This document shows, piece by piece, positions 4,057 through 14,597 of a stretch of DNA of 14,597 nt. The position numbers and the translations under genes are program-made. A model generated the notes under the pieces. That model saw only the letters and a list, made by a program, of their open reading frames with translations, had not been told where the DNA came from and searched no databases. Position 1 is the stretch's first letter; every line of letters begins with the position of its first letter. This stretch comes from Deltaproteobacteria bacterium (GTDB lineage Bacteria > DRYD01), in contig JAPYWL010000033.1 in the NCBI GenBank assembly GCA_028276365.1, positions 1 through 14,597 on the forward strand, given 5' to 3'.

Positions 4057-4794
4057 ATGAACAAAAATGAAATAAAAGAAAATTCAAATGAAATAGATAA
4101 TAATAAAAAAGATCAAGAAATAGAAAATTATGAATTAAATATAAAACTTTCTTTTCCTTTACATGTAAAAAAATCAATAACAATAATTAACAAAATCATA
4201 AAAAAAATAAATACAATTGTATATATAGTAGATTCCAGGGTATTTGAATTGACCTTAGACTTAGATATTTTAACTCAGTTTAATTTAAAAGATAAATTTC
4301 TTATATTTTTTTTTAACAAAACAGATTTAATAGATGAAATTATCCAGAAAAAACTTAAAAACTTCATAGATAATATAAAAAATAACATAGATGAATTAAA
4401 AAAAAGATTTAAATTAAAAGAGATCTTTTTCATAGTAGGTAATAAAGATAAAATTAAAGAATTAAGAAAAACTTTAAAAGAAATAGCTAAAAAAGAGTTA
4501 TTCATAAATGTAGTAATAATAGGTTATCCAAATGTAGGTAAATCTACTATTATTAATAAATTAGTAAATAGATCTAAAGCTAAAGTAGAGGATAAAGTAG
4601 GAACTACTAAGTCATTACAATGGTTTTCAATTGAATATAATATAAAAATCTTAGATAGTCCAGGTATAATATTACCTAAAAATATTTCTCTTAAAAATGC
4701 CTTAATACTATATAAATTTAACATAATTTCAGAAAATTTTATCCCATTACCTAAAGAAAAAATAAAAACATTACTAACAAAATTAAAAATATGA
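4057..4794 (+). CDS. rbgA: Circularly permuted ribosome-assembly GTPase, RbgA/YlqF type, short C-terminus
   Basis: This 245-residue GTPase has its motifs in the permuted order G4-G5-G1-G2-G3 typical of the YlqF/RbgA group: NKTD at 87-90 (G4), GYPNVGKST at 156-164 (P-loop), GTTKSLQW at 182-189 (G2) and DSPG at 200-203 (G3). The FPLHVKKS segment (33-40) corresponds to the FPGHMAKA start of RbgA, preceded here by about 30 polar residues. RbgA promotes late maturation of the 50S subunit in the cytoplasm. Family members are around 280 residues with roughly 100 after G3; only about 42 follow here, so most of the helical C-terminal RNA-contacting domain is missing. The stop overlaps the next start (ATGA, 4791-4794), implying translational coupling to the epimerase. 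No Shine-Dalgarno precedes the ATG. The subfamily call is good; retained function is uncertain. Confidence 0.82.
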   Translation: MNKNEIKENSNEIDNNKKDQEIENYELNIKLSFPLHVKKSITIINKIIKKINTIVYIVDSRVFELTLDLDILTQFNLKDKFLIFFFNKTDLIDEIIQKKLKNFIDNIKNNIDELKKRFKLKEIFFIVGNKDKIKELRKTLKEIAKKELFINVVIIGYPNVGKSTIINKLVNRSKAKVEDKVGTTKSLQWFSIEYNIKILDSPGIILPKNISLKNALILYKFNIISENFIPLPKEKIKTLLTKLKI

Positions 4795-6011
4795 AAAAAA
4801 TAGTAAGTATAATAGGAACTAGACCACAATACATAAAATTAAAACCCATCTACGACCAATTTAATAAAATTAATAAAACATTAAATAATAAAATAAAACA
4901 TATAATTATCAATACATCACAGCATTATGATTACAATATGTCCAAAATATTTTTTGAAGATCTAATTATAGAAAACATAGATTACCATTTAGATATAGAC
5001 TATAGTTTGATATCAAATCAAGGAGAGCAAACCGCTTTAATGATAAAAAAATTAGAAGAATTAATCCTAAAAATAAATCCAGATATAGCGTTAGTATATG
5101 GAGATACAAATAGTACATTAGCAGGAGCTATAGTATGCTCAAAGCTAAAAATTCCAATTGCCCATATTGAAGCAGGTTTAAGAAGCTATAACAAACTAAT
5201 GCCCGAAGAAATAAATAGAATATTAACAGACAATATATCCACCTTTTTATTATGTCCTACAAAAAACTCAATACTAAATCTTAAAAAAGAAGGATTTAAA
5301 AATCTAATCCCTAAGCTCATTAGCTTAAAAGAAATAAACAAAATAAATTTTAAGCAATACAACATAAATAACCCTATTGCAATAAATACAGGCGACATTA
5401 TGTACGATTTACTCAATTTAGTTCTAAATAAAATAAAAAAAAATTATAATAAACTAAATATTTTAAACGAACTAAACCTTTCACCTTTGGATTATATTTT
5501 ATTAACAATCCATAGACAAGAAAATACTGAGAATAAAAATATACTAAAAGAGCTATTAATCTTTGTAAATGAAATATCTAAGAAATACAATAAAAAAATA
5601 ATCTTCCCCATACACCCAAGAACAAAAAAAATACTAAATGATTTAAAAATCAATATACTAAATAATTTCTTAATACTAAATCCAGTAAAATATACAGATA
5701 ATATTTTCCTAATATTAAACTCTTTCATAGTACTAACAGATTCAGGTGGGATACAAAAAGAAGCTTATTTACTAAAAGTACCCACCATTACCTTAAGAAA
5801 AGAAACCGAATGGATTGAAACTTTAAAAAATAATTTTAACATCCTTTATAAAGATTTCATAAATAAATACAATAATAATCATCCATTAATAAATAAAAGA
5901 GAGAAATTTTATAATGAAATATTATCTAAAAAGTTAAGTCTTAATGAATTCGGTGATACTAAAGCAGCTAATAAAATAATAAAGATTATTCTTAATTATA
6001 TAAACCTTTAA
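4791..6011 (+). CDS. wecB: UDP-N-acetylglucosamine 2-epimerase, non-hydrolysing
   Basis: A 406-residue cytoplasmic enzyme interconverting UDP-GlcNAc and UDP-ManNAc, which feeds ManNAc-type sugars into surface polysaccharides. Family motifs run in order: SIIGTRPQYIKLKPI near the N-terminus, TSQHYDYNMS, VYGDTNSTLAGA, HIEAGLRSYNKLMPEEINR (substrate and catalytic region), NTGDIMYD, LTIHRQENT, FPIHPRT, and TDSGGIQKEAYLLKVPTITLRKETEW (UDP-binding C-terminal domain, read in two parts). The usual length is about 370-380. The extra residues sit mainly in an insertion around 175-200, between the Rossmann domains and before NTGD. Translation probably starts by coupling to the GTPase through the ATGA overlap. 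An A9 run at 5435-5443 lies inside the gene without breaking the frame. No other polysaccharide gene is in the window, so its pathway cannot be assigned. Confidence 0.93.
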   Translation: MKKIVSIIGTRPQYIKLKPIYDQFNKINKTLNNKIKHIIINTSQHYDYNMSKIFFEDLIIENIDYHLDIDYSLISNQGEQTALMIKKLEELILKINPDIALVYGDTNSTLAGAIVCSKLKIPIAHIEAGLRSYNKLMPEEINRILTDNISTFLLCPTKNSILNLKKEGFKNLIPKLISLKEINKINFKQYNINNPIAINTGDIMYDLLNLVLNKIKKNYNKLNILNELNLSPLDYILLTIHRQENTENKNILKELLIFVNEISKKYNKKIIFPIHPRTKKILNDLKINILNNFLILNPVKYTDNIFLILNSFIVLTDSGGIQKEAYLLKVPTITLRKETEWIETLKNNFNILYKDFINKYNNNHPLINKREKFYNEILSKKLSLNEFGDTKAANKIIKIILNYINL

Positions 6012-6568: not shown

Positions 6569-6626
6569 TTAATTAAAATAAATAGTTTTTGTTTAATTAA
6601 AATAAAGTTTAATTAAAATAAGTTAA
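6569..6626. repeat. Three AT-rich direct repeats between nuoJ and rpmI
   Basis: The sequence ttaattaaaata begins at 6569, 6593 and 6609, each copy followed by aa or ag. The last copy extends into an 18-mer that overlaps the nuoJ stop codon and recurs exactly at the end of the copper ATPase (7233-7250). The region holds no gene and probably carries the rpmI promoter and the nuoJ 3' end, but I could not assign either. Confidence 0.5.
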
Positions 6627-7165
6627 TCTTTTTTAGCGATAGAAACAGCAGCCAATATTGCAGCTAATATTAGAATTCCCGCTAATTCAAATAACAAGAA
6701 AAACTTACCCCCATTTATTATATCATCTGGCTTATATATATTAAAAAACGAGTTAGCAAAATGTGATAAACTTAATTTAATATTATTTATAGTGATTTTA
6801 CCAACTGAATATAAATCTTTAAAAATTACAAAAAATAATGTAAGAAATGTTATTATTAAGAAAGCAGATAAAACAGAAGCCCACACATAATGGGGTTTAA
6901 AGTCAATAAGAGAAGCATCTTCTAAAGATTTTATCTTAGCAGGAGAATGCATTATAGCAAATAAAATCAAAATAGCAATAGCACCTGCATATATAATTAA
7001 TTGAACAACTGCTAAAAATTCAGCAGCTAAAAGTAAATAGATACCACCTAAAAATATAAACGCAAAAACCAAAGCTGTAGCAGCTCTAAAAATATCCCTA
7101 TTAAAAACCGCCACTAAACTTAAAATCCCTACTAACGTTACTAAAATCAAATAAACTGTCTTCAT
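6623..7165 (-). CDS. nuoJ: NADH-quinone oxidoreductase subunit J (complex I)
   Basis: A 180-residue membrane protein matching NuoJ/ND6, a proton-pumping-arm subunit of respiratory complex I in the inner membrane. Five hydrophobic segments are visible at about 3-22, 27-47, 50-72, 92-114 and 154-176. The signature GGIYLLLAAEFLAVVQLIIYAGAIAILILF matches the conserved TM3 region (family YLLLGAEFLA-VQ-LVYAGAI-VLFLF), read in two parts at about 40-69. The loop around 115-150 is soluble. Normally nuoJ lies between nuoI and nuoK; here neither is present, and its neighbours are a copper ATPase and rpmI. A GGAGG lies more than 30 nt before the ATG, too far to serve it, and an in-frame stop lies between, so the start is as given. 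Confidence 0.88.
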   Translation of the reverse strand: MKTVYLILVTLVGILSLVAVFNRDIFRAATALVFAFIFLGGIYLLLAAEFLAVVQLIIYAGAIAILILFAIMHSPAKIKSLEDASLIDFKPHYVWASVLSAFLIITFLTLFFVIFKDLYSVGKITINNIKLSLSHFANSFFNIYKPDDIINGGKFFLLFELAGILILAAILAAVSIAKKD

Positions 7166-7236: not shown

Positions 7237-7578
7237 TTAAAATAAGTTAAAAATAAGTAAAGAAATAGAGCTTAATGACATAGATATAGAAGCTAATATC
7301 GGATTAATAAATATCCCTATATTATAAAATACTCCCATAGCTAAAGGTATCAGTAAAATATTATAAAAAAATACCCAAAATAAATTAAATCTTAATTTAT
7401 TAAACGTTTTTAAACTTATTAAATAAAAATCCTTTAAATAAGAAATATCCTTAAGAATAGCATCAGCTAAATTCTGTGTTAAATCATTACCATATTCAAA
7501 AGAAATACCAACATCTGCTTCTTTTATAACTATACTATCATTAATTCCATCACCAACAAAAACAACGCTACCTTTTTT
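7237..7578 (-). CDS. Copper P-type ATPase, C-terminal segment (third frame)
   Basis: An open frame from the A7 tract (7573-7579) to a TAA at 7237-7239, with no start codon of its own placed usefully. It encodes the end of the ATPase: VFVGDGIND, the Mg-binding hinge of the P domain (about residue 673 of the composite), then VIKEADVGIS and a LADAILKDIS region as in P1B pumps. The last two transmembrane helices carry the Cu(I)-site signatures FYN (TM7) and SMSLSS (TM8). This supports Cu(I) specificity together with CPC upstream. It joins the preceding segment only if one base of the A7 run is skipped. Confidence 0.8.
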   Translation of the reverse strand, partial: KKGSVVFVGDGINDSIVIKEADVGISFEYGNDLTQNLADAILKDISYLKDFYLISLKTFNKLRFNLFWVFFYNILLIPLAMGVFYNIGIFINPILASISMSLSSISLLIFNLF

Positions 7579-8344
7579 TCTTTAAATTTAATAAAATATC
7601 ATACTTTTTAACACTATTTACCTCATAAAAAACATTATTTAAACTAATATTTAAATTTTTAGCTAAATAAATAGCTGAATCTTTAACCCCTCCCGTTAAA
7701 ATATATATCTCTTTTTTATTATCTCTTAAATAATTAATTAACTCAAAAACTTCTGATCTTATTTCCTCTTGATAGTTAATAACCCCTATATAAAATAAAT
7801 TCCCTTTACCAAATTTAAAAAATAAAACAAAATAAATACTTAAACAATCACTATTAGATATTGCTTTAAATTCCTCTTCTACTTTTTCAGTATCAAAAAA
7901 CTTTTTCAAAAACTCGAAAACAAAAGCTTTACTTCCCATATATACTTCATATTCAATATTCACACTATAATTAAAATTAACTTTAGCAAATATCCCCTTA
8001 GAAACTACTTCCTTAAAATCAATTATCTTATGATTTTTTAACAATTTATATAAACTAAAACCATATTTAGCTTTAATAAAAGAATTAATAGATTTAGATA
8101 AAACATGATTAGATTTATAGGTAGCAATAAACATAGCTTGATTAATAAAAGTATCATTAACCTCAAAATCATTATTAAAATCATTAAAATTATTATTCTC
8201 AATATCTTTATTCTCACTTACTCCTTTATAAATTATATCTTTAATAATAATGTTATTAGAAGTAATAGTTCCAGTTTTATCAAAGACAAAAATTTTAGAT
8301 TTAACAATTTTTTCAAAAGCAGAAATATCTTTAACTAAAATATT
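7568..8344 (-). CDS. Copper P-type ATPase, middle segment (second frame): phosphorylation and nucleotide-binding domains
   Basis: This frame is open from the A9 tract (8343-8351) down to a TAG at 7568-7570; the first internal ATG is only at 8134. It starts with NILVKDISAFEKI and IFVFDKTGTIT, containing the phosphorylated Asp (DKTGT at 8267-8281, composite residue 431). The nucleotide-binding domain follows with SNHVLSKSI where P1B pumps have SEHPLAKA, so the Pro of the HP motif is Val. In the P domain, YILTGGVKDSA stands where the family has LTGDN, so the motif Asp is Gly. It ends at LKKKR, a TAG created by the A7 tract; skipping one A restores KKGSVVFVGDG. Confidence 0.8.
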   Translation of the reverse strand, partial: NILVKDISAFEKIVKSKIFVFDKTGTITSNNIIIKDIIYKGVSENKDIENNNFNDFNNDFEVNDTFINQAMFIATYKSNHVLSKSINSFIKAKYGFSLYKLLKNHKIIDFKEVVSKGIFAKVNFNYSVNIEYEVYMGSKAFVFEFLKKFFDTEKVEEEFKAISNSDCLSIYFVLFFKFGKGNLFYIGVINYQEEIRSEVFELINYLRDNKKEIYILTGGVKDSAIYLAKNLNISLNNVFYEVNSVKKYDILLNLKKKR

Positions 8345-9572
8345 TTTTTTTAATAGCTTGGATAATCCCTTTATTAACGGCTAAGGGATAAGCAAGTCCT
8401 ACAGCACAAGGACAAGCTATAATTAATGTAGATATAAAACTCTTAAAAGCCATTTCATTATTATTAAAAATAAATTTCCAAATAATTAAACTCATAACTG
8501 CTAAAGAGAAAACAATAATAACGAAATTACCAGCTATCTTATCTACAAAATTTAAATAACTACTTTCCTTATTTGAAATATTTTTTATCAAATATTCTAA
8601 GGAATGCCAAAAAGATTGCTCATAACTTTCAATAGCTTTTAATTTTATATTTCCATTAACAACCAAAGCCCCTGAATGAACTTCATCATTAACTTTTAAC
8701 TCTATTCTATTAAATTCTCCATAAATAAAATTTAAATCAATTAAAGCTTGACCTTCTATTATTACTCCATTAACTGGTACAAAATCCCCATTTTTTAGCT
8801 CTATTATATCCCCTTCTTTTAAGGATTGAATATCAACTTCTTTTATTTCATTATTTTTAAATAATAATACTTTTTTAGGTTTATATCTTAGTAAATTAGT
8901 TATACTACCTATCTTTTTAGTTTTTAATTTATTTTCAATATACTTACCTAATAAAATAACTCCAATAATAACACATAAACTTTCAAAATAATATATATGA
9001 ATATCATTAAAAAGATTATAAACACTATAAAAATAAGCGGAAGTAGTAGATAAAGAAATCAATACATCCATATTAAGGGTTTTATTTTTTATAGCAAAAA
9101 ATGAATTCCTTAAAAACCTATAGCCACCTACAAAATACACAAAACTTGAAACAAAAAACACAATTAATAAAACCACTTGAGAACTTAGCAATAAATTATG
9201 GAAAAACATAGAAATAACAAAAACTAAAAATGATAACAAATTTATAAATAAAACAAATATAAATTCTTTATCAAAAAAAATACTTTGCTTTTCAATTGAT
9301 TCTTTTTTTTCAATTTTTTTTGAAATCTCAGAAGTAGTATCTTTAGGGGGTATTTCAAGTTTATAACCTAAAGATTCTATATCTTTTTTTATATTATCTA
9401 AAAATTCCTGATTTTTTAAGGAAATAAATAATTTAGAACTATTTAAATCAATGTCGAAAAAATCAATCTGATTTTCATATTTTTTTATTTTAAATTTGAT
9501 ATTATTAACGCAATTAACATAATGAATTTTATTTATATTAATTTCTAATACTTCGCTTTTAAAGGAGTCCAT
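8331..9572 (-). CDS. Copper P-type ATPase, N-terminal segment: metal-binding domain, actuator domain, TM1-6
   Basis: A 413-codon frame with an ATG at 9572 and no clear Shine-Dalgarno. Residues 1-75 resemble an HMA metal-binding domain, but the usual CxxC is reduced to HYVNC, leaving one Cys (21). Transmembrane helices follow from about 100, then an actuator domain with GDFVPVNG and, at 8712-8723, YGEF where the family has TGES (the catalytic Glu is kept, the Thr is not). The next helix carries the metal-site CPC (387-389; 8406-8414) in STLIIACPCAVGLAYPL. The frame ends six codons after entering AAA AAA AAA at 8343-8351; one fewer A would continue into the DKTGT segment. With both breaks repaired the protein is about 777 residues, normal for CopA/CcoI-type pumps that move Cu(I) out of the cytoplasm. 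Confidence 0.85.
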   Translation of the reverse strand: MDSFKSEVLEININKIHYVNCVNNIKFKIKKYENQIDFFDIDLNSSKLFISLKNQEFLDNIKKDIESLGYKLEIPPKDTTSEISKKIEKKESIEKQSIFFDKEFIFVLFINLLSFLVFVISMFFHNLLLSSQVVLLIVFFVSSFVYFVGGYRFLRNSFFAIKNKTLNMDVLISLSTTSAYFYSVYNLFNDIHIYYFESLCVIIGVILLGKYIENKLKTKKIGSITNLLRYKPKKVLLFKNNEIKEVDIQSLKEGDIIELKNGDFVPVNGVIIEGQALIDLNFIYGEFNRIELKVNDEVHSGALVVNGNIKLKAIESYEQSFWHSLEYLIKNISNKESSYLNFVDKIAGNFVIIVFSLAVMSLIIWKFIFNNNEMAFKSFISTLIIACPCAVGLAYPLAVNKGIIQAIKKKYFS

Positions 9573-10882: not shown

Positions 10883-10902
10883 ATTTTACCCTATTTTACC
10901 CT
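10883..10902. repeat. 10-bp tandem duplication across the stop of the downstream AAA gene
   Basis: attttaccct is present twice in tandem (10883-10892, 10893-10902). The copy boundary falls at the TAG stop (10891-10893). Confidence 0.7.
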
Positions 10903-12417
10903 CTTATACTCATAATTCACTATCTTCTTCTTTAGTTTATCTATCTCTATTCCCACTATATACACCCTCTCGTAATTCATATACTTCTTATAGTATTCCC
11001 TCTCTTGAATTTGTTTTATCGCTTTCCCTTTCTCCTCCTCTCTTTCTATTACCTTCACCTCTATTATATATACTATCCCTTTATTCACTATTACCACTAA
11101 ATCTATTCTCCCTTTATCTGTATTGTCTTCTGTTATTACATTTAATCCTGTTGAATACAATAAACTAAATATTGCTATCACATAACTTGACTCCCCTTTA
11201 TAATGTACATAACTTATATTACTTATTAACACTTCTATCTGCTCTCTTAGCTCCTCTAATTTCTCTCCCTTTAATATCTCTATTATCTTACCCGATATAT
11301 TCTCCCTTATTTCATCTTTTAATACCAACGGTAATATATCCTCATTAAACGATATCCTTACCTCCTTATTCGGATATCCTAATCTATACTCCTGTCCATA
11401 TTCTCTCTCATATGCCTCTTTTATTGTTAAATATCCCGTTTGATACATTAATGCTTCTATTTTTATCTCTTCTATGTCAAATTTTTCTAATACATTTTTC
11501 TTTACTATTTTGTTCTCTAATTCTGATATATCATATTCTTTTTCCTTTATCAGTTTTATTAAAAAACTCGGTGTTCCTGTCTTATACCAATAACTATCAT
11601 ATTCCCTATTCCTTAAATATAACAATATATCAAAGGGATTATATACTCTGTCCCCCAAAAAACTATATCCATTATACCATTCCTTTACTTCCTCTAAATC
11701 CACTCCTTCTAAATACTCCTTAAAATAAATCTCCAATTCCTCCTGTGTATATCCACATATATTCCCATATTCTTTGCTTAACGATATATCTTCTAACTGA
11801 TTTAATCCACTAAATAATGATACTTTTGAAAATTTACTCACTCCTGTTATTATCACAAACCTTATATACCTATCTAATCCTTTTAAGACTGAATACAATG
11901 CTTTTAGCTCTTTTCTTACTTCTTCTGCTTCTTTTTTATCCTCTATTACATCTAATATCGGCTTATCATATTCATCTACTAATACTACCACCTGCTTCCT
12001 CTCTCTTTCACTTATTCTCATTATTAATTCCTCTAATAATATACTCTCATCTCTTGTCTCTTTTGGCATCTCCAACTTATTCCACATATAATTCTTCCTT
12101 AATTCCTGATACATCTTCTCTTTTAAATCTTCCTTATTTTTTATATCTTTGGCAAAATCTATCCTTACTACCGGCTTAGTCTCTTCCCATTCCCACTTAT
12201 CTTCTATATACAATCCCTTATATAACTCTCTTTCTCCTTTAAATAAATACTCAATTGTTGATAACAATAATGATTTTCCAAAACGCCTCGGACGACTTAG
12301 AAAGTAATATTTCCCTTGATTAACTAACTTATATATATACTCCGTTTTATCCACGTATATATAATTCCCTTTTATTAACTCCTTAAAATCACTTATCCCT
12401 ATTCCTAACTTCTTCAT
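10891..12417 (-). CDS. AAA-ATPase-like protein with C-terminal PD-(D/E)XK nuclease-like domain, downstream paralogue
   Basis: A 508-residue protein of the DUF1703 type: an AAA-ATPase-like domain (Pfam AAA-ATPase_like) followed by a PD-(D/E)XK-fold domain (PDDEXK_9). The start is set at 12417, not the ATG 36 nt upstream, because the MKKLGIGISDFKEL start then aligns with the neighbouring paralogue and a G-rich ribosome-binding site sits 8 nt away. Visible motifs are GISDFK and YVDKTEYIY near the N-terminus, the P-loop RPRRFGKSLL (RRFGKS at 44-49), Walker B VVVLVDEYDKPIL, ITGVSKFSKVSLFSGL (sensor region) and, near the C-terminus, GRIDLVV...IIEVK...QIQEREYY, which supplies the D, E-x-K and Q of the nuclease fold. 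It is cytoplasmic and soluble. The biological role of this family is not established. Its second half is almost identical in DNA to the upstream copy. Confidence 0.88.
   Translation of the reverse strand: MKKLGIGISDFKELIKGNYIYVDKTEYIYKLVNQGKYYFLSRPRRFGKSLLLSTIEYLFKGERELYKGLYIEDKWEWEETKPVVRIDFAKDIKNKEDLKEKMYQELRKNYMWNKLEMPKETRDESILLEELIMRISERERKQVVVLVDEYDKPILDVIEDKKEAEEVRKELKALYSVLKGLDRYIRFVIITGVSKFSKVSLFSGLNQLEDISLSKEYGNICGYTQEELEIYFKEYLEGVDLEEVKEWYNGYSFLGDRVYNPFDILLYLRNREYDSYWYKTGTPSFLIKLIKEKEYDISELENKIVKKNVLEKFDIEEIKIEALMYQTGYLTIKEAYEREYGQEYRLGYPNKEVRISFNEDILPLVLKDEIRENISGKIIEILKGEKLEELREQIEVLISNISYVHYKGESSYVIAIFSLLYSTGLNVITEDNTDKGRIDLVVIVNKGIVYIIEVKVIEREEEKGKAIKQIQEREYYKKYMNYERVYIVGIEIDKLKKKIVNYEYKRVK
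11072..11823. repeat. Near-identical 752-bp block, copy in the downstream AAA gene
   Basis: Aligns base for base, without gaps, to 12663-13414 (offset 1591). By eye I found two mismatches (one near 11184 and one near 11221). It codes for the C-terminal half of both AAA proteins. Beyond both ends similarity falls quickly. Confidence 0.85.
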
Positions 12418-12425
12418 CCTTTTTA

Positions 12426-12432
12426 CCCCCCC
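12426..12432 (-). promoter_or_regulatory. G7 ribosome-binding site that decides the start of the downstream AAA gene
   Basis: GGGGGGG lies 8 nt before the ATG at 12417, within AAGGAAGGGGGGGTAAAAAG. The alternative ATG at 12453 lies upstream of it, has no such site, and would add 12 residues absent from the paralogue. Confidence 0.6.
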
Positions 12433-12453
12433 TTCCTTAATGATATTATCCAA

Positions 12454-12485
12454 CTAAAAAATACTCTATCTAAAAAATACTCTAT
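12454..12485. repeat. Exact 16-bp tandem duplication between the two AAA genes
   Basis: ctaaaaaatactctat is repeated head to tail (12454-12469, 12470-12485). The second copy runs into the TAG stop (12482-12484) of the upstream AAA gene. Confidence 0.8.
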
Positions 12486-14014
12486 TTCACCCTCTTATAC
12501 TCATAATTTATTATCTTCTTCTTATTCCTATCTATCTCTATTCCCACTATATATATCTTCTCATAATTCATATACTTCTTATAATACTCCCTCTCTTGAA
12601 TTTGTTTTATCGCTTTCCCTTTCTCCTCTTCTCTTTCTATTACCTTCACCTCTATTACATACACTATCCCTTTATTCACTATTACCACTAAATCTATTCT
12701 CCCTTTATCTGTATTGTCTTCTGTTATTACATTTAATCCTGTTGAATACAATAAACTAAATATTGCTATCACATAGCTTGACTCCCCTTTATAATGTACA
12801 TAACTTATATTGCTTATTAACACTTCTATCTGCTCTCTTAGCTCCTCTAATTTCTCTCCCTTTAATATCTCTATTATCTTACCCGATATATTCTCCCTTA
12901 TTTCATCTTTTAATACCAACGGTAATATATCCTCATTAAACGATATCCTTACCTCCTTATTCGGATATCCTAATCTATACTCCTGTCCATATTCTCTCTC
13001 ATATGCCTCTTTTATTGTTAAATATCCCGTTTGATACATTAATGCTTCTATTTTTATCTCTTCTATGTCAAATTTTTCTAATACATTTTTCTTTACTATT
13101 TTGTTCTCTAATTCTGATATATCATATTCTTTTTCCTTTATCAGTTTTATTAAAAAACTCGGTGTTCCTGTCTTATACCAATAACTATCATATTCCCTAT
13201 TCCTTAAATATAACAATATATCAAAGGGATTATATACTCTGTCCCCCAAAAAACTATATCCATTATACCATTCCTTTACTTCCTCTAAATCCACTCCTTC
13301 TAAATACTCCTTAAAATAAATCTCCAATTCCTCCTGTGTATATCCACATATATTCCCATATTCTTTGCTTAACGATATATCTTCTAACTGATTTAATCCA
13401 CTAAATAATGATACCTTCGCAAACTTACTCACTCCCGTTATTAATACAAATCTTATATACCTATCTAACCCTTTTAATGTTGTATAAAATCCTTTTAATA
13501 CTTCTCTTATCCTCTCTACTTTCTCCTTCTTCTCTATATTATCCAATATCGCCTTATCATACTCGTCTATTAATATTACCACCTGCTTTTTACTCACTTC
13601 ATATATCCTCTCTATTAATAATTCTAAATTTCTATTTATCGTATATTCCTTTTTGTATTTATACCTATATCTTTTACCCGTTTCTATTATTATTGCTCTT
13701 AACTCTTTTTCTAATTCCTTTTCATCTCTTACTTGTGTCTTTGAAAAGTCTATCCTTACTACCGGATACTTTTCTTCCCAATTCCACTTTTCCTCTATAT
13801 ACAATCCCTTATATAACTCTCTTTCCCCTTTAAATAAATACTCTATTGTTGATAGTAATAACGATTTTCCAAAACGTCTTGGACGACTTAAAAAATAATA
13901 TCCCCCTCCCTCCTTTATCATTCTATATATATACTCTGTCTTATCTACATATATATACCCTCCCTCTCTTAGTTTCTTAAAATCACTTATTCCTATTGGT
14001 AATAACTTCTTCAT
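12482..14014 (-). CDS. AAA-ATPase-like protein with C-terminal PD-(D/E)XK nuclease-like domain, upstream paralogue
   Basis: A 510-residue homologue of the next gene downstream, same architecture: PIGISDFKKL and YVDKTEYIY, P-loop RRFGKS (46-51), Walker B VVILIDE (145-151), ITGVSKFAKVSLFSGL (192-206), and the PD-(D/E)XK core with Asp 441 in GRIDLV, Glu 455 and Lys 457 in IEVK, and Gln in the following QIQEREYY. GGAGG (14024-14028) lies 9 nt before the ATG. The segment between P-loop and Walker B (about 85-180) differs strongly from the paralogue, while the C-terminal half (about residues 201-450) is identical at protein level. The mRNA strand is purine-rich, continuing the purine tract of the leader. 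Transposon-derived, defence or cell-regulatory roles have all been conceivable for this family; the sequence does not decide. Confidence 0.9.
   Translation of the reverse strand: MKKLLPIGISDFKKLREGGYIYVDKTEYIYRMIKEGGGYYFLSRPRRFGKSLLLSTIEYLFKGERELYKGLYIEEKWNWEEKYPVVRIDFSKTQVRDEKELEKELRAIIIETGKRYRYKYKKEYTINRNLELLIERIYEVSKKQVVILIDEYDKAILDNIEKKEKVERIREVLKGFYTTLKGLDRYIRFVLITGVSKFAKVSLFSGLNQLEDISLSKEYGNICGYTQEELEIYFKEYLEGVDLEEVKEWYNGYSFLGDRVYNPFDILLYLRNREYDSYWYKTGTPSFLIKLIKEKEYDISELENKIVKKNVLEKFDIEEIKIEALMYQTGYLTIKEAYEREYGQEYRLGYPNKEVRISFNEDILPLVLKDEIRENISGKIIEILKGEKLEELREQIEVLISNISYVHYKGESSYVIAIFSLLYSTGLNVITEDNTDKGRIDLVVIVNKGIVYVIEVKVIEREEEKGKAIKQIQEREYYKKYMNYEKIYIVGIEIDRNKKKIINYEYKRVK
12663..13414. 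repeat. Near-identical 752-bp block, copy in the upstream AAA gene
   Basis: The partner of 11072-11823, in direct orientation. The block covers synonymous and nonsynonymous sites alike, which points to recent duplication or gene conversion rather than selection on protein. Confidence 0.85.
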
Positions 14015-14151
14015 CCTTTATTTCCTCCTCTTTCTTTCTTTCTTTCCTTTTTTTTATTCCTTTTTTCTTCCCTTTTACCTCTTTTCCCTCTCTTTTTTCT
14101 CTTTTTTTCTCTTTTTCTCTTTTTCTCTCCTTTTCTCTCTTTTTTTCTCCT
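14015..14151. repeat. Polypyrimidine/polypurine tract upstream of the AAA genes
   Basis: About 135 bp in which the plus strand is almost only C and T (three A and no G by my count), rich in tttctttctttc and ctcttttt runs with partial mirror symmetry. On the minus strand this is the A/G-only 5' leader directly before the upstream AAA start. Such tracts can form triplex (H-DNA) structures; that is inference. The open frame across it on the plus strand is low-complexity Phe/Ser/Leu and is not a gene. Confidence 0.8.
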
Positions 14152-14597
14152 TACTTCCTTTTGTTCCCTTTACCTCCTTTTGCTTTCTTTTGGTTTCCTT
14201 TGGTTTTATTTGCTTCCCTTTAGTTTCATTTGTTTTCATTTGTTTTCATTTGTTTTCATTTAATTTCATTTGATTTCCTTTGGTTTCATTTGGTTTCATT
14301 TGGTTTCCTTTGGTTCCTTTTGCTTTTTTGGTTTAATTAGGTTCAATTAACTTCAATTGGGTTCAATTGAGTTCTATTGGTTCCTTTTGGTTTCCCCTGG
14401 TTCCTTTTTTGCTCTTCTGCTTTCTTATTTACATAATATACTTCCAGCACCGCAAATATTATAATCGTTTTACTTCCTTTGACTTCCTTTGACTTCAATC
14501 CGTTTTAATTGATTTCAATTGATTTCAATTGGGTTCAATTGGGTTCAATTGGGTTCAATTGGGTTCAATTGGGTTCAATTGGGTTCAATTGGGTTCA
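14152..14597. repeat. Degenerate 10-bp satellite, near-perfect at the right edge
   Basis: The sequence keeps a 10-bp period over most of this stretch. From 14191 to about 14320 thirteen successive decamers vary around tggtttcatt (tgttttcatt three times running). From about 14331 to 14400 the pattern is ttcaattgg-like and irregular. From 14471 it resumes as tacttccttt, gacttccttt and gatttcaatt, and from 14531 to the edge it is gggttcaatt, perfect for at least six units and cut by the window end. The only clearly non-repetitive island is 14411-14470. Copies are contiguous, with no unique spacers, and the period is not a multiple of three, so it is neither CRISPR nor coding. Confidence 0.85.
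14411..14470 (-). promoter_or_regulatory. Unique island inside the satellite, possible promoter of the AAA pair
   Basis: These about 60 bp break the repeat and include cttatttacataatata and, on the minus strand, TATAAT (14463-14458). No convincing -35 box is spaced correctly. It is suggested as a promoter only because it is the sole non-repetitive sequence upstream of the AAA pair in the window. Confidence 0.2.

What the first reader, a model, noticed from the sequence alone, without database searches (positions are those of the whole stretch)
7237..9572. Copper ATPase in three frames, both breaks at poly-A tracts and in the same direction
The frame of an otherwise complete P1B-ATPase is lost exactly at A9 (8343-8351) and again at A7 (7573-7579). 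In both cases one A fewer restores conserved sequence: K-N-I-L-V...DKTGT after the first, K-K-G-S-V-V-F-V-GDGIND after the second. No other stop interrupts about 777 codons. Random decay would be expected to scatter indels and stops. RNA polymerase or ribosome slippage on A tracts is known to rescue such genes in AT-rich genomes, so this could be a slippage-decoded pump making truncated and full-length products. An A9 run in wecB (5435-5443) stays in frame, so the tract alone is normal for this genome.
Basis: partly seen in the sequence, partly recalled or inferred. Interest (0 to 1): 0.75.

Follow-up and report, generated by a model that had tools for sequence, protein, structure and literature searches.

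The report
Copper pump gene broken at poly-A runs
A bacterial metal-pump gene has picked up two one-base frame breaks in runs of A, most likely a recent loss of the gene (or, less likely, a sequence error); other genes of the same genus do carry shared frame breaks at longer A/T runs that look genuinely decoded by slippage, but the pump does not fit that pattern.

Summary
In detail: one P1B-type ATPase gene (7237-9572, minus strand) runs in three frames that change exactly at A9 (8343-8351) and A7 (7573-7579), each one A longer than its relatives' frame, with no other stop. Slippage is not supported for this gene. (1) The same-genus orthologue (69% identical) and same-family orthologues are intact; at these sites G001 has A5 and an in-frame A7. 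(2) In both genomes coding A runs are depleted only from nine upward; A7 and A8 are as common as expected, so A7 is no noticeable slip site. (3) Both breaks need a base removed, the rarer slip direction. (4) Missing stops say little: an unselected copy would reach a 50% chance of a stop at about 0.6% divergence, 95% at 2.4-2.9%. Most likely a recently inactivated gene; consensus error and on/off tract variation remain. The ATPase differs from them in sign and conservation, and at its second site in tract length.

The parts
8334..9572 (-). ATPase piece 1: N-terminal HMA-like region (CxxC degenerate, first Cys is Tyr), TM helices, actuator domain, CPC motif; 413-codon ORF (stop 8331-8333)
8343..8351 (-). 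A9 tract, first frame break (one A more than the relatives' frame)
7574..8350 (-). ATPase piece 2: DKTGT phosphorylation site, nucleotide-binding domain
7573..7579 (-). A7 tract, second frame break (one A more than the relatives' frame)
7240..7581 (-). ATPase piece 3: GDGIND hinge and last two TM helices; stop codon at 7237-7239
6623..7165 (-). intact NuoJ-like gene directly downstream; the ATPase-NuoJ order is kept in G001
5435..5443 (+). in-frame A9 control tract in wecB (ORF 4791-6011)

Best explanation
The gene is a recently inactivated heavy-metal (probably Cu+) P1B-ATPase. An A was gained in each of two poly-A tracts by replication slippage in the lineage of this strain after it split from G001. 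Translation stops after 413 codons, before the phosphorylation site, so no working pump is made. Shown: the breaks, their absence in relatives, no faster protein evolution in this lineage. Inferred: that the tract lengths are real, and that no useful full-length protein is made.
For: Intact orthologues in the one same-genus and four same-family genomes. Site 1 is AAAAATAAC (A5) in G001 and site 2 an in-frame A7, so neither break is conserved. Amino-acid changes unique to each lineage are equal (52 vs 49; family-invariant residues lost 20 vs 16), so constraint held until very recently. A copy free of selection would need about 13-16 substitutions for a 50% chance of a stop and 55-67 for 95% (0.5-0.7% and 2.4-2.9% divergence), so a young break explains the missing stops. 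Losses specific to this lineage include the first Cys of the HMA CxxC (C18Y) and the Asp of PVDG (D268N). No COX1-type oxidase was found in any of the six family genomes, so no oxidase that would need the pump is seen. Both tract changes need a base removed in mRNA (or +1 ribosomal slip), the rarer direction: in Buchnera 151 of 157 transcription insertions but only 16 of 57 deletions fell in homopolymers, and no restored frame was seen (PMC5574713); E. coli RNAP needs at least 7 T and more A (PMC6260861).
Against: Two lesions and no stop in one gene is somewhat neat for decay. The raw reads are not available, so the tract lengths rest on a metagenome-type draft of 124 contigs. The gene is the only P-type ATPase found in the genome. 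Middle-piece divergence is only slightly higher in this lineage (21 vs 13 unique changes), not clearly relaxed.
Confidence: 0.55

Rival explanations
1. Consensus or assembly error: the real tracts are A8 and A6 and the gene is intact.
For: Draft genome of 124 contigs, reads unseen; relatives intact; unconserved A7/T7 breaks also occur elsewhere (pilin-like genes at G000 L131:841-847 and G001 C6:51931-51937).
Against: The assembly is not error-ridden: of 49 coding tracts of 9 or more with long open frames on both sides, 45 are in frame, and about 810 tracts of 7-8 are in frame. Two independent errors in one gene out of about 500 would be unlikely (inference).
Confidence: 0.22
2. On/off switching: the A9 (and A7) tract changes length often by slipped-strand mispairing, and this assembly caught an off state.
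For: Tracts of 9 or more are depleted in coding DNA (0.67 of expected for A9, 0.21 for A10), so they are costly, which fits instability. Poly-A/T tracts are known to cause phase variation (PMC3711429).
Against: The A9 tract is not conserved in G001; two broken tracts would have to switch together; A7 is not a depleted length; a full-length MutS is present and the MutL C-terminus is found at a contig end, so mismatch repair does not look lost.
Confidence: 0.13
3. Slippage decoding as proposed: RNA polymerase or ribosome slippage at both tracts makes some full-length pump and a truncated product.
For: The genus seems to decode other genes this way (recF-, cca-, flippase- and DUF58-like genes broken at the same T10/A10/T9/T9 tract in two species). 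A9 is in the length range where slippage matters (PMC1088944).
Against: Wrong sign: all eight other breaks at tracts of 9 or more are one base short (an added base or a -1 ribosomal slip restores them), the ATPase A9 is the only one that is one base long. Not conserved. The second site is A7; A7 and A8 coding runs are at 107-109% of expectation. Two slips would multiply. No unusual fold downstream of either site.
Confidence: 0.08
4. The pieces are separately translated subunits of a split pump.
For: The second ORF has an ATG at 8134.
Against: A protein from that ATG would lack the DKTGT phosphorylation site; the third piece has no start near its beginning; all relatives have one chain.
Confidence: 0.02

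Closest known systems
Frameshifted genes at poly-A/poly-T tracts in Blochmannia and Buchnera (PMC3017870; PMC5574713)
   Same: Single-base indels in A/T tracts of an AT-rich genome, the gene otherwise intact, evolutionary rate not raised.
   Different: The genes counted there as possibly slippage-rescued have a single indel; here there are two, one in an A7. Some symbiont breaks are shared by species; the ATPase breaks are not, whereas the four other breaks found here are.
E. coli copA, programmed -1 ribosomal frameshift giving a CopZ-like chaperone (reviewed in PMC7558416 and PMC5009743)
   Same: A copper P1B-ATPase gene in which the reading frame changes.
   Different: In copA the standard frame gives the full pump and the shift gives a 70-residue product at the N-terminal end, with a slippery site and an mRNA pseudoknot. 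Here the standard frame is truncated at codon 413, the shift needed is of opposite sign, the tract is not conserved and no stimulatory fold is seen.
Thermus thermophilus dnaX, RNA polymerase slippage on A9 (described in PMC1088944)
   Same: A9 tract inside a coding sequence.
   Different: There the DNA is in frame for the long product; here it is out of frame and a second break follows.
CopA-type Cu+ P1B-ATPases (TIGR01511, TIGR01525)
   Same: CPC, DKTGT, GDGIND, MxLSS, HMA-like N terminus.
   Different: The HMA CxxC has lost its first Cys, the TGE-type motif reads YGE and the HP motif reads HV (HI in G001); the gene is broken.

Membership tests
P1B-type (Cu+/heavy metal) ATPase | CPC in a transmembrane helix, DKTGT phosphorylation site, GDGIND hinge | tested here: met
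P1B-type (Cu+/heavy metal) ATPase | one continuous reading frame giving all domains | tested here: not met
   three frames, breaks at A9 and A7; met in G001-G005
P1B-type (Cu+/heavy metal) ATPase | N-terminal HMA CxxC metal site | tested here: not met
   HYVNC in the window, HCVNC in G001
Slippage-decoded (recoded) gene | frame break conserved among diverged relatives | tested here: not met
   intact in G001-G005
Slippage-decoded (recoded) gene | tract long enough to slip in this organism (depleted from coding DNA) | tested here: inconclusive
   A9 yes (0.67 of expected), A7 no (1.07)
Slippage-decoded (recoded) gene | sign of the break matches the genus pattern (one base short) | tested here: not met
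   eight of eight other long-tract breaks are one base short, the ATPase A9 is one base long
Slippage-decoded (recoded) gene | mixed-length mRNA or full-length protein | not testable with these tools
   no RNA or protein data
Programmed ribosomal frameshift (copA type) | conserved slippery heptamer with a downstream stimulatory structure | tested here: not met
   tract not conserved; downstream folds z = 0.0 and -0.7
Pseudogene | inactivating lesions absent in relatives | tested here: met
Pseudogene | faster protein evolution after the lesion | tested here: not met
   52 vs 49 unique changes; expected to be undetectable if the lesion is young

The most novel reading that the evidence does not exclude
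The genus decodes several housekeeping-type genes across long A/T runs by slippage (supported on its own by four breaks shared by two species; I put that part at about 0.75), and the ATPase is a further member decoded through two slip sites of opposite sign, giving mostly a truncated membrane protein and a little full pump. The probability is for the ATPase being included.
Probability: 0.08. Interest if true: 0.75.

Novelty: new member of a known kind. Interest (0 to 1): 0.36.

Why it matters
For the ATPase itself little: it shows how tracts, sign and conservation can tell a lesion from recoding without RNA data. The side result matters more: recF-like and cca-like genes frame-broken at identical 10-base homopolymers in two species of one AT-rich genus, and intact in the sister genus, would be a clear case of slippage decoding outside the well-known insect symbionts (lifestyle of this organism unknown), open to direct test by cDNA sequencing.

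Tried and rejected
Homopolymer-error-ridden assembly as the whole explanation: rejected by the near absence of other breaks. Loss of mismatch repair as the cause: a MutL profile found nothing in G000 and its G001 neighbour ilvE lies next to other genes, but the MutL C-terminus is present at the very end of contig C46, so it is only cut off by the assembly; MutS is complete. Programmed -1 frameshift like copA: wrong sign, no conserved site, no fold. Split subunits: piece 2 lacks the phosphorylation site when started at its ATG. Faster evolution as a test for decay: no difference. A second ATPase that would make this one redundant: none found. Several of the frame switches listed by the reference-free scan are ordinary gene junctions and were discarded by eye.

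Full report
What is there. The window is contig C93 of a 1.59-Mb genome in 124 contigs, 24% GC in the sample read, 87% complete. On the minus strand 9572-7237 carries a P1B-ATPase in three frames. The first frame ends after 413 codons just behind an A9, the second behind an A7, and the third runs to the normal C terminus. All three pieces match copper/heavy-metal P-type ATPase models, and CPC, DKTGT, GDGIND and MxLSS are kept.

Relatives. The single same-genus genome (G001) has one open frame of 791 codons, 69% identical over the first piece; four same-family genomes also have uninterrupted frames. At site 1 G001 reads AAAAATAAC (longest run 5), at site 2 it has an A7 that is in frame. Thus both breaks arose in the lineage of this genome, and the tract at site 1 is itself new.

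Is it an error-ridden assembly? No. Open frames from about 0.96 Mb of G001 were aligned to 0.83 Mb of G000: about 500 ORFs, 119,551 aligned residues. Apart from rRNA/tRNA shadows, real breaks in G000 were the two in the ATPase, one at A7 in a pilin-like gene (L131), and two indels without homopolymers in a decaying gene (C16 near 20.0-20.3 kb). The two ATPase breaks could still be errors, but two in one gene by chance would be unlikely (inference).

Does a lack of stops show function? No. About 4.4-5.3% of single-base changes in this sequence create a stop, so 13-16 neutral substitutions give a 50% chance of one and 55-67 give 95%, i.e. 0.5-0.7% and 2.4-2.9% divergence. A recent break needs no rescue. 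Up to the break the gene was constrained as in G001: 52 unique amino-acid changes here against 49 there; family-invariant residues lost 20 against 16. The gene as a whole evolves faster than most (pN/pS 0.43 against a median of 0.24 for 298 orthologues), so it is not among the most constrained genes of the genus. Losses confined to this lineage include the first Cys of the HMA CxxC and the Asp of PVDG.

Can the organism slip at these tracts? Codon-shuffled controls show that A runs of 5 to 8 in coding DNA are at 106-109% of expectation, A9 at 67%, A10 at 21%, none longer; T runs fall from about 8 on; G001 is alike. So slippage costs begin at nine for A. The A9 is at the threshold, the A7 is not. 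Published data agree: the selection threshold is nine in many genomes (PMC1088944); E. coli polymerase needs at least 7 T and more A, with insertion about 0.39% at an A7 and deletion rarer (PMC6260861); in Buchnera homopolymer errors are mostly insertions and no frame was seen to be restored (PMC5574713). The ATPase would need a deletion (or +2, or a +1 ribosomal slip) at both sites.

An unexpected control. A scan that does not depend on a relative looked for tracts with clear coding frames on both sides. Among 90 tracts of nine or more in both genomes, 81 are in frame and 9 are broken; among roughly 1,800 tracts of 7-8 only a handful are (junctions sorted out by eye). Eight of the nine long-tract breaks are one base short; the ATPase A9 is the only one that is one base long. 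Four of the eight long-tract breaks make two-species sets: recF-like (T10 in both), cca/poly(A) polymerase-like (A10 in both), a polysaccharide flippase (T9 in both) and a DUF58-like gene (T9 in both) (the name DUF58 is my own reading, not a profile match; the G000 copy of that gene came from a targeted search, outside the scan of 90 tracts). Pfam supports the other three names. pN/pS is the same on both sides of the break in the three tested (recF 0.254/0.257, cca 0.349/0.293, flippase 0.354/0.350), and in the sister genus recF and cca are single open frames. Long conservation of a broken frame with constraint downstream of it is best explained by decoding across the tract, by RNA polymerase adding a base or by a -1 ribosomal slip; parallel assembly error in two genomes is the main alternative. 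By contrast, a T7 break in a G001 FAD-oxidoreductase has an eroded remnant as its G000 counterpart. The ATPase resembles this second class.

Mechanism chosen. Replication slippage added an A in each tract; the product ends behind the CPC helix, without the P- and N-domains, and cannot pump. No COX1-type oxidase was found in the six family genomes, which may have made the pump dispensable (inference). Confidence 0.55; consensus error 0.22; switching 0.13; slippage decoding 0.08; split subunits 0.02.

Limits. One same-genus genome only; no reads, RNA or protein data; about half of each genome was read; the names recF-like, cca-like and flippase are from weak to moderate Pfam matches plus motifs; the junction sorting was done by eye.

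Noticed in passing
G000 C52:895-904 (L116/L172) and G001 C11:60514-60523 (L149/L171): recF-like gene frame-broken at a T10 run in both species, one base short, same constraint on both sides; a single open frame in the sister genus.
   Followed up: partly
G000 C60:1747-1756 (L124/L166) and G001 C4:65873-65882 (L144/L165): cca/poly(A) polymerase-like gene frame-broken at an A10 run in both species, one base short; a single open frame in four sister-genus genomes.
   Followed up: partly
G000 C35:4013-4021 (L079/L177) and G001 C2:1895-1903 (L044/L176): Polysaccharide flippase-like gene frame-broken at a T9 run in both species, one base short.
   Followed up: partly
G000 L179:1512-1520 and G001 C6:108533-108541 (L087): DUF58-like gene (name not tested) frame-broken at a T9 run in both species, one base short.
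   Followed up: partly
G001 C4:17218-17227 (L046): Glycosyltransferase-like gene frame-broken at T10, one base short; its G000 counterpart was not found in the half read.
   Followed up: no
window 10891-12453 and 12482-14014: Two tandem AAA-ATPase_like/PDDEXK_9 genes with almost identical C-terminal halves; at least nine further copies lie on other contigs, suggesting gene conversion or expansion.
   Followed up: no
window 14030-14597: Pyrimidine-rich stretch passing into short repeats (ttcatttggttt, gggttcaattg) up to the contig end.
   Followed up: no
L130:5740-6170: CRISPR-like array of about five degenerate repeats (GTTTAGCTTACCCATAGGGGAATTGAAAG) between an ilvE-like gene and an AAA-ATPase gene.
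   Followed up: no
G000 C71 (L178): Remnant of an FAD-dependent oxidoreductase with stops; its G001 counterpart is nearly full length with one T7 frame break.
   Followed up: partly
G000 L131:841-847 and G001 C6:51931-51937: Pilin-like genes each frame-broken at an A7 in one species only, one base short.
   Followed up: partly
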